42,012 bases of DNA from Solobacterium sp. GTDB taxonomy: Bacteria; Bacillota_I; Bacilli_A; Erysipelotrichales; Erysipelotrichaceae. The position numbers and the translations under genes are program-made. The notes under the pieces were generated by a model. That model was not told where the DNA came from. It saw only the letters and a list, made by a program, of their open reading frames with translations, and did not search any database. The DNA lies in the NCBI GenBank assembly GCA_017536885.1, contig JAFWCM010000224.1, forward strand, positions 1-42,012. Reading direction: 5' to 3'. Below are positions 34,953 to 35,840 of this stretch, piece after piece. Numbering within the stretch: the first letter of the stretch is position 1; the number at the start of each line of letters is the position of its first letter.

Positions 34953-35270
34953 TGAGTCATTCTCTGCGGCCCGCTCCCGGAAGGGAAAAAACCGTGTCCC
35001 AACGGTACGGTTCCGACGGGATCTTCATGCCTGCATGCGCTGTGAGACAGGCACTTCATTTCTTTCAGCAATGACCTGTCTCCCCTCTTTTCCTTTCGGG
35101 TGCGGATTTCACGCTGTATCATATAAACAGAACATCATCATAAGGTGTTTTATTGTTCAGAAGAAGGATTCGGAACAGGAAGCGCCGGAAATTCCCCCGT
35201 CAGAAAAGCGGGACCCGGTTTCGTCCGTGTTCCGCAGAAAGACTGCTTTCAGAAGGAAAAGGAGATTATC
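34953..35270. other. Divergent intergenic region between epimerase and GG-leader gene
   Basis: There is no gene here that I can support. It holds an 8-bp GAGACAGG/CCTGTCTC inverted repeat with a 23-base loop (35044-35082), followed on the plus strand by TCTTTTCCTTT, which could act as a terminator. An ACCGT/ACGGT hairpin lies near 34996. On the plus strand a TATCAT/ATATAA region near 35116-35124 might be the promoter of the downstream gene, but no -35 is convincing. Short open frames on both strands lack ribosome sites. Confidence 0.35.
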
Positions 35271-35771
35271 ATGACAGAAAAAACAAAGACAAGCAGCGAA
35301 ATGCTCGAAGAAGTTCATGGCGGCACAGCCGATGCCTATCGTATTCTCAGGCAGGATGTTCAGGCGATGATTCCCGATGCGGTGAAAGAAAAACTCGCCG
35401 CCGCGAAAAGCGATCCTGAAGCCTGCAGGATTCTCGAAGAGAGCGGCGTAAACCTTGAAGCAATTCAGAAGAAGATCGCCGATGCCGGATTCGGCCGGAT
35501 GAAGAACGGCCTGCAGGAGATCTCCGAAGAAGCGCTTGAAAGCGCTGCGGGAGGCTTCTTTCCGATCAATACCGGGACTGATATCGTATGTACCTGCGGC
35601 GCCAGAAAGAGAGAAGACTTTGCGGTCCAGGCATTTCTTGCACTAACCGGCATAAGCAATTACATGTTTATCTACCGCTGCTTAAAATGCGGCCAGCTGA
35701 TCGGGTTAACCAGCGACGGCAAGGTCGAATACATTGATCTTAGTCTGCCGCTTGGGGGAAAAGGGATTTAA
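35271..35771 (+). CDS. Double-glycine-leader protein with two Cys pairs (RiPP-precursor-like)
   Basis: 166 aa from the ATG at 35271, which has GGAG 6 bases upstream. Residues 1-95 look like an acidic, helical leader: KEKLAAAKSDPEACRILEESGVN resembles Nif11-type leaders, and EISEEALESAAGG (83-95) is a classic double-glycine processing site. The following 71 residues start FFPINTG and contain C-T-C at 107-109 and C-L-K-C at 137-140, which could bind a metal as a zinc ribbon or form disulphides or thioethers. There is no maturase, peptidase or ABC exporter gene within the window, so it is an orphan. A second GG at 17-18 (EEVHGG) is unlikely to be the processing site. It could be a bacteriocin or modified peptide, or a small metal-binding protein that merely resembles one. 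Confidence 0.65.
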   Translation: MTEKTKTSSEMLEEVHGGTADAYRILRQDVQAMIPDAVKEKLAAAKSDPEACRILEESGVNLEAIQKKIADAGFGRMKNGLQEISEEALESAAGGFFPINTGTDIVCTCGARKREDFAVQAFLALTGISNYMFIYRCLKCGQLIGLTSDGKVEYIDLSLPLGGKGI

Positions 35772-35794
35772 CAAACACACGCTTGGATTCGATG

Positions 35795-35840
35795 AAGCGA
35801 TATGAGATCTGCCGATCGGCAATCCGTATCGCTTTTCTTC
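35795..35840 (+). terminator. Terminator of the GG-leader gene
   Basis: AAGCGATA (35795-35802) pairs with TATCGCTT (35827-35834) and encloses the palindrome TGCCGATCGGCA. TTTCTTC follows, 25 bases after the stop codon. Confidence 0.6.

What the first reader, a model, noticed from the sequence alone, without database searches (positions are those of the whole stretch)
35271..35771. Orphan double-glycine-leader protein with CxC and CxxC pairs inside a polysaccharide locus
Residues 83-95 end in a textbook GG processing site after an acidic Nif11-like leader, but the 71-residue remainder is long and looks like a zinc ribbon. No modification, protease or export gene accompanies it. It has its own terminator and a divergent upstream region. 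It may be a new type of secreted, GG-processed peptide, or a leader fold reused for a cytoplasmic protein.
Basis: partly seen in the sequence, partly recalled or inferred. Interest (0 to 1): 0.6.

Follow-up and report, generated by a model that had tools for sequence, protein, structure and literature searches.

The report
Exported zinc-ribbon mini-protein with double-glycine leader
A gut bacterium related to Solobacterium carries a small protein that looks like a zinc-holding module behind a removable export tag; it is one of about 17 such proteins in its genome, and in related bacteria they occur only where a matching tag-cutting exporter is present, except for one copy that has decayed where the exporter is absent.

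Summary
In detail: window 35271-35771 (+) encodes 166 aa, a helical Nif11-like leader ending ...EISEEALESAAGG (94-95), then a 71-aa core with C107-x-C109 and C137-x2-C140. The gene is not a one-off. Homologues occur in 12 of 70 genomes of its genus; all 12 are among the 18 carrying an NHLM peptidase/ABC exporter (TIGR03796; p about 2e-9, uncorrected for kinship). In a family-wide sample 7 of 8 carriers have it; the eighth has no C39 peptidase at all and its copy is a pseudogene that has also lost zinc cysteines. The window's genome has four NHLM exporters elsewhere and about 17 GG-leader/zinc-ribbon proteins. Leaders vary in length and sequence, but the L(-12), L(-7), V/I(-4), GG site and the cysteines persist. 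The core evolves more slowly than the leader, unlike Nif11 RiPP cores. The core profile matches RPA12/RPB9 zinc ribbons. Best reading: an unmodified zinc-ribbon mini-protein cut and exported by an NHLM transporter encoded elsewhere; the polysaccharide setting is incidental. What it does outside the cell is unknown; competition or signalling is a guess.

The parts
35257..35264 (+). ribosome-binding site AAAAGGAG
   Evidence: sequence; supports ATG at 35271
35271..35771 (+). CDS, 166 aa precursor
   Evidence: orthologues start at the same place; dN/dS about 0.17
35271..35324 (+). N-terminal short leader ending EMLEEVHGG (residues 1-18, first GG at 17-18)
   Evidence: sequence; matched in relatives as LEKVDGG / IEKVTGG; absent from the short-form members
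35325..35549 (+). Nif11-like helical leader domain (residues 19-93)
   Evidence: aligned with Nif11-like leaders in A1; AF2 helices 19-77, blocks mostly pLDDT 73-84; TIGR03798 only weak, E 0.15, below cut-off
35520..35555 (+). predicted C39 recognition and cleavage site ISEEALESAAGG (I-12, L-7, A-4, G-2, G-1)
   Evidence: same pattern in about 70 relatives; residues 75-100 pLDDT <50, i.e. a flexible linker; recognition rule from PMC6363468
35556..35768 (+). 71-aa predicted mature core, zinc ribbon
   Evidence: A4 core profile hits RPA12 (E 3.5e-6) and RPB9 1qyp (E 1.2e-4) zinc ribbons; slower evolution than leader
35589..35597 (+). first zinc knuckle C107-T-C109 (then G)
   Evidence: cysteines invariant in A4; most other members have CPxC
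35679..35690 (+). second zinc knuckle C137-L-K-C140 preceded by R136
   Evidence: invariant cysteines in A4
35794..35838 (+). intrinsic-terminator-like hairpin with U-rich tail

Best explanation
The gene encodes the precursor of an unmodified, secreted zinc-ribbon mini-protein. The leader (short GG leader plus Nif11-like helical domain) docks on the C39 peptidase domain of an NHLM-type peptidase/ABC transporter encoded elsewhere in the genome. The peptidase cuts after G95, and the roughly 71-residue core is exported and folds around one zinc ion outside. Shown here by sequence: two-part architecture, GG site, zinc-ribbon signature, presence of the exporter, co-occurrence, and decay where the exporter is absent. 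Inferred: the actual cleavage, export and zinc binding. The most likely role outside is contact with other cells (competition or signalling); that part is a guess.
For: All 12 carriers in the genus lie among the 18 of 70 genomes with a full-length NHLM ABC1 (hypergeometric 1.7e-9, 6e-7 on high-quality genomes only). Family sample: 7 of 8 carriers against 14 of 195; the exception G164 has no Peptidase_C39 at all and its copy has a stop, a frameshift and two zinc Cys changed to Tyr. Exporters of the window's genome score above the TIGR03796 cut-off (C21, C242). GG plus zinc-finger genes lie beside exporters in L116 and L123. The same L-12/L-7/V-4/GG pattern occurs in about 70 distinct members with different leader lengths; those positions are what a C39 peptidase grips (PMC6363468). 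Core profile matches RPA12/RPB9 zinc ribbons. AF2: folded leader, disordered GG linker, beta-ribbon core. Two of the own-genome NHLM loci (C21, C26) show no recognisable modification enzyme among the genes listed (read by eye).
Against: No direct evidence of cleavage, secretion or zinc binding. The gene is not linked to an exporter. Co-occurrence is not corrected for kinship within the genus. The leader scores below the TIGR03798 cut-off. Structure comparison gave no zinc-ribbon match. No immunity-type neighbour was recognised beside the own-genome copies. Two members have AG instead of GG.
Confidence: 0.7

Rival explanations
1. The Nif11-like domain plus zinc ribbon is a cytoplasmic protein (for example a regulator or RNA polymerase-binding ribbon), and the GG is a relic of a borrowed leader.
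For: No linked exporter; core matches RNA polymerase-type zinc ribbons RPA12/RPB9; core strongly conserved; single-gene unit with its own terminator.
Against: 12 of 12 carriers in the genus have the exporter; GG context kept across leaders that otherwise differ; pseudogene in the exporter-less genome.
Confidence: 0.15
2. It is a RiPP precursor whose core cysteines are modified (lanthionine or radical-SAM thioether) rather than zinc-bound.
For: Nif11-like leaders usually serve RiPPs (PMC2887384); the own genome has a PoyD-type radical SAM at one NHLM locus; in G431 a protein with a radical-SAM-type CxxxCxxC motif lies in the exporter operon (motif read by eye).
Against: Cys spacing and flanks (C-x(1-2)-C-G ... 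R-C-x2-C) are those of a zinc ribbon and the cysteines are invariant over diverse cores; core conserved rather than hypervariable; no maturase recognised at the C21 or C26 loci.
Confidence: 0.1
3. Cleavage happens at the first GG (17-18), so the exported product is the Nif11-like domain plus ribbon (148 aa).
For: First GG conserved in most long-form members; in 7 of 7 genomes with such members a second, dead-peptidase NHLM ABC1 is present (p 0.002, post hoc).
Against: Short-form and some long-form members lack the first GG but keep the second; the first site has Thr rather than a hydrophobic residue at -12.
Confidence: 0.15

Closest known systems
Nif11-derived leader peptides, N11P (TIGR03798; Haft et al. 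2010, PMC2887384)
   Same: Helical leader of about 70 residues ending in a LSxEELExVxGG-type site, many paralogues per genome, co-occurrence with NHLM transporters
   Different: Below TIGR03798 cut-off; core is a conserved folded zinc ribbon rather than a short variable region rich in modifiable residues; no dedicated modification enzyme recognised
NHLM peptidase/ABC exporters (TIGR03796/03797/03794) and LahT-type PCATs (PMC6363468)
   Same: Predicted processing machinery; present in four copies in the genome
   Different: Not encoded next to this gene; the HlyD partner is a stub at C21 and C26; one clade of ABC1 has lost the catalytic Cys and His
Class II bacteriocins with double-glycine leader (TIGR01847, Bacteriocin_IIc)
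   Same: Unmodified core behind a GG leader cut by a C39 transporter
   Different: Core is a predicted metal-binding ribbon of about 70 aa; no immunity gene recognised next to the own-genome copies; leader is long and in tandem
RPB9/RPA12/TFIIS-type zinc ribbons
   Same: Two zinc knuckles in a beta ribbon (sequence profile match)
   Different: No RNA polymerase partner known; here sits behind an export leader

Membership tests
N11P (TIGR03798) | profile score above 32.3 bits | tested here: not met
   12.3 bits for the window protein; a long-form relative 22.4 bits
N11P (TIGR03798) | GG site ending the leader | tested here: met
   residues 94-95, conserved
N11P (TIGR03798) | family-wide similarity ends at GG, variable core | tested here: not met
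   core more conserved than leader: dN 0.13 against 0.22; 0.006 against 0.066 for the closest pair
C39/PCAT substrate | hydrophobic -12, -7, -4 and GG/GA at -2/-1 | tested here: met
   I, L, A, GG; relatives L, L, V/I, GG
C39/PCAT substrate | a catalytically intact C39 transporter in the genome | tested here: met
   C21 and C242 with Q/C/H/D intact
C39/PCAT substrate | actual cleavage and export | not testable with these tools
   needs biochemistry
zinc ribbon | two CxxC-type knuckles with RPB9/TFIIS-like profile match | tested here: met
   first knuckle is CxC in this copy
zinc ribbon | fold match of the predicted model | tested here: inconclusive
   no significant Foldseek or VIA match; model pLDDT 75
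class II bacteriocin | profile match above cut-off | tested here: not met
   Bacteriocin_IIc 15.6 bits against 27.1
class II bacteriocin | antibacterial activity | not testable with these tools
   needs assay

The most novel reading that the evidence does not exclude
A two-exporter relay: the dead-peptidase NHLM transporter (C39 with Cys to Asn and His lost) recognises the N-terminal short leader of tandem-leader precursors, the live one cuts at the second GG, and together they secrete a large set of folded zinc-ribbon proteins used between cells.
Probability: 0.15. Interest if true: 0.8.

Novelty: new variant of a known kind. Interest (0 to 1): 0.6.

Why it matters
It points to a class of exported proteins not found described in the literature searched: conserved zinc-ribbon modules behind swappable double-glycine leaders, about 17 in one gut genome, also present in a distant family of the same class. 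It suggests that NHLM/C39 exporters without a recognised modification enzyme may secrete folded metal proteins rather than RiPPs, and gives a directly testable cleavage site.

Tried and rejected
Pfam and NCBIfam searches of the protein gave nothing above cut-off, and the single-sequence PDB search nothing significant; the plasmid search gave only chance-level matches. Foldseek and VIA-align on the AF2 models gave no meaningful match. A link to polysaccharide synthesis was rejected: orthologous loci share only this gene with the window (one distant 22% match between unrelated-position genes aside). Literature searches for zinc-ribbon GG peptides found none; subscription papers are mostly not held.

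Full report
What is there. Window 35271-35771 (+) encodes a 166-aa protein with a ribosome-binding site before the ATG, a terminator-like hairpin behind it and a divergent epimerase gene upstream. It has two double-glycine sites: EMLEEVHGG (17-18) and EISEEALESAAGG (94-95). The 71-aa remainder carries C-x-C and R-C-x2-C. No library names it above cut-off.

It is a family. The first search found E <= 0.01 matches in ten other genomes; the two closest, G011 and G044, are about 71% identical, and two of the weakest (G069, and G032, whose match lies in a transporter-like binding protein) look spurious. Aligned, the members share a Nif11-like segment (SDxExCRILAENGxDxExIEK), a GG followed by F/Y/W, and four cysteines. 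Some members are short (about 110 aa: one Nif11-like leader, GG, ribbon); most long ones have an additional short leader with its own GG in front. Named records place the relatives in Solobacterium and other Erysipelotrichaceae MAGs, several from ruminant guts. The A1 family is confined to two genera of one family in an order-wide sample.

It belongs to a larger set. A profile of short-leader members (A5) finds 17 places in the window's own genome at E <= 0.001; reading the loci gives about 17 GG-leader/zinc-ribbon proteins, including a four-gene tandem array on C261 and two proteins with double ribbons (one place, C313, was not checked). It also finds arrays in a distant family of the same class, where Nif11-like leaders (ELLKGLTEEQIAKVKACK...LTEEQLEAVSGG) precede CPKCGS...C..CG ribbons. 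Of 77 distinct ribbon-pattern hits, 71 have GG or GA upstream, and at the chosen site the leader ends in L-12, L-7, V/I-4, G-2, G/A-1 (where several GGs were present the script picked the one best fitting -7 and -4, which favours the pattern somewhat). These are the positions that dock into the C39 peptidase LahT (PMC6363468).

The exporter. The genome has four NHLM peptidase/ABC transporters: C21 (with ECF sigma factor, HlyD stub and partner ABC2), C26, C277 and C242; the last has a PoyD-type radical SAM and an NHLP-type precursor. No maturase was recognised at C21 or C26 (by eye). Across 70 genomes of the genus, 18 have a full-length ABC1 (counted by me as matches spanning the C39 domain at over 580 bits) and 12 have the A1 family; all 12 are among the 18 (p 1.7e-9; 6e-7 on high-quality genomes). 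In a 195-genome family sample, 14 have ABC1 and 8 carry the family, 7 of them in common (p 1.4e-8). The two samples overlap. The eighth, G164, has no C39 peptidase at all, and its copy has a stop, a frameshift and two zinc Cys changed to Tyr. Kinship is not corrected for, so the p values overstate. Physical linkage exists for analogous genes: GG plus zinc-finger proteins follow the exporters in L116 and L123.

The core. Its profile matches the zinc ribbons of RPA12 (E 3.5e-6) and RPB9 (1.2e-4) in PDB sequences. AF2 shows a helical leader, an unstructured linker holding the cleavage GG, and a beta-ribbon core at moderate confidence; fold searches were uninformative. Selection: dN in leader against core 0.22/0.13 between the window protein and G011, 0.066/0.006 between G011 and G044, with dS about 1.05 and 0.25-0.31. 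Nif11 RiPP precursors show the opposite, with family-wide similarity ending at the GG (PMC2887384).

Dead-peptidase paralogues. The 35 ABC1 proteins compared split into two groups. One of 12, including own C277, has Asn for the catalytic Cys in all 12 and no catalytic His, i.e. a C39-like domain as in HlyB (PMC6363468, PMC10986499). It was seen only together with a live ABC1, except in the 69%-complete G010. Own C26 keeps the Cys but has Asn for the His. All seven genomes whose long-form members have the first GG also have the dead-peptidase exporter; the p of 0.002 is post hoc.

Conclusion. The best model is a cut-and-export precursor of an unmodified zinc-ribbon protein. Cleavage, secretion, zinc binding and function remain untested. 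The polysaccharide neighbourhood is incidental.

Noticed in passing
G000:C277 (L075:8958-11123) and 11 related loci (L116, L117-L122, L191, L194, L198, L199): A clade of NHLM ABC1 transporters with a conserved dead C39 domain (catalytic Cys to Asn in 12 of 12, His lost), seen together with a live ABC1 in all but one incomplete genome.
   Followed up: partly
L078:2617-3872 (G000:C261): Tandem array of four GG-leader proteins with similar CPxC...-type cores; a divergent fifth GG-ribbon gene lies further along the same contig (L175:2454-2735).
   Followed up: partly
L169:6883-7272 and L174:6871-7239: GG-leader proteins with two zinc ribbons in series.
   Followed up: no
L137:8308-8696 (G164): Decayed copy of the family in a genome with no C39 peptidase found: stop, frameshift and two zinc Cys changed to Tyr.
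   Followed up: yes
L138 (G262:C214) and L139 (G262:C43): Two long-form members in one MAG each carry an in-frame TAA, at codon 3 and between the Nif11-like part and the last GG; pseudogenes or assembly error.
   Followed up: no
L025:9755-10039: GG-leader protein with a repetitive ASNKA-type core among the zinc-ribbon paralogues.
   Followed up: no
L107:2516-3232: 238-aa protein with a short GG leader, much larger than usual GG peptides, near an NHLM exporter.
   Followed up: no
L188:5468-17951 (G431:C12): NHLM exporter operon with a radical-SAM-like gene and a short Nif11 peptide, several kb from an array of Nif11 zinc-ribbon genes.
   Followed up: partly
L074:1498-3688 (G000:C242): NHLP-leader precursor next to a PoyD-type radical SAM epimerase: a likely proteusin-type RiPP locus.
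   Followed up: no
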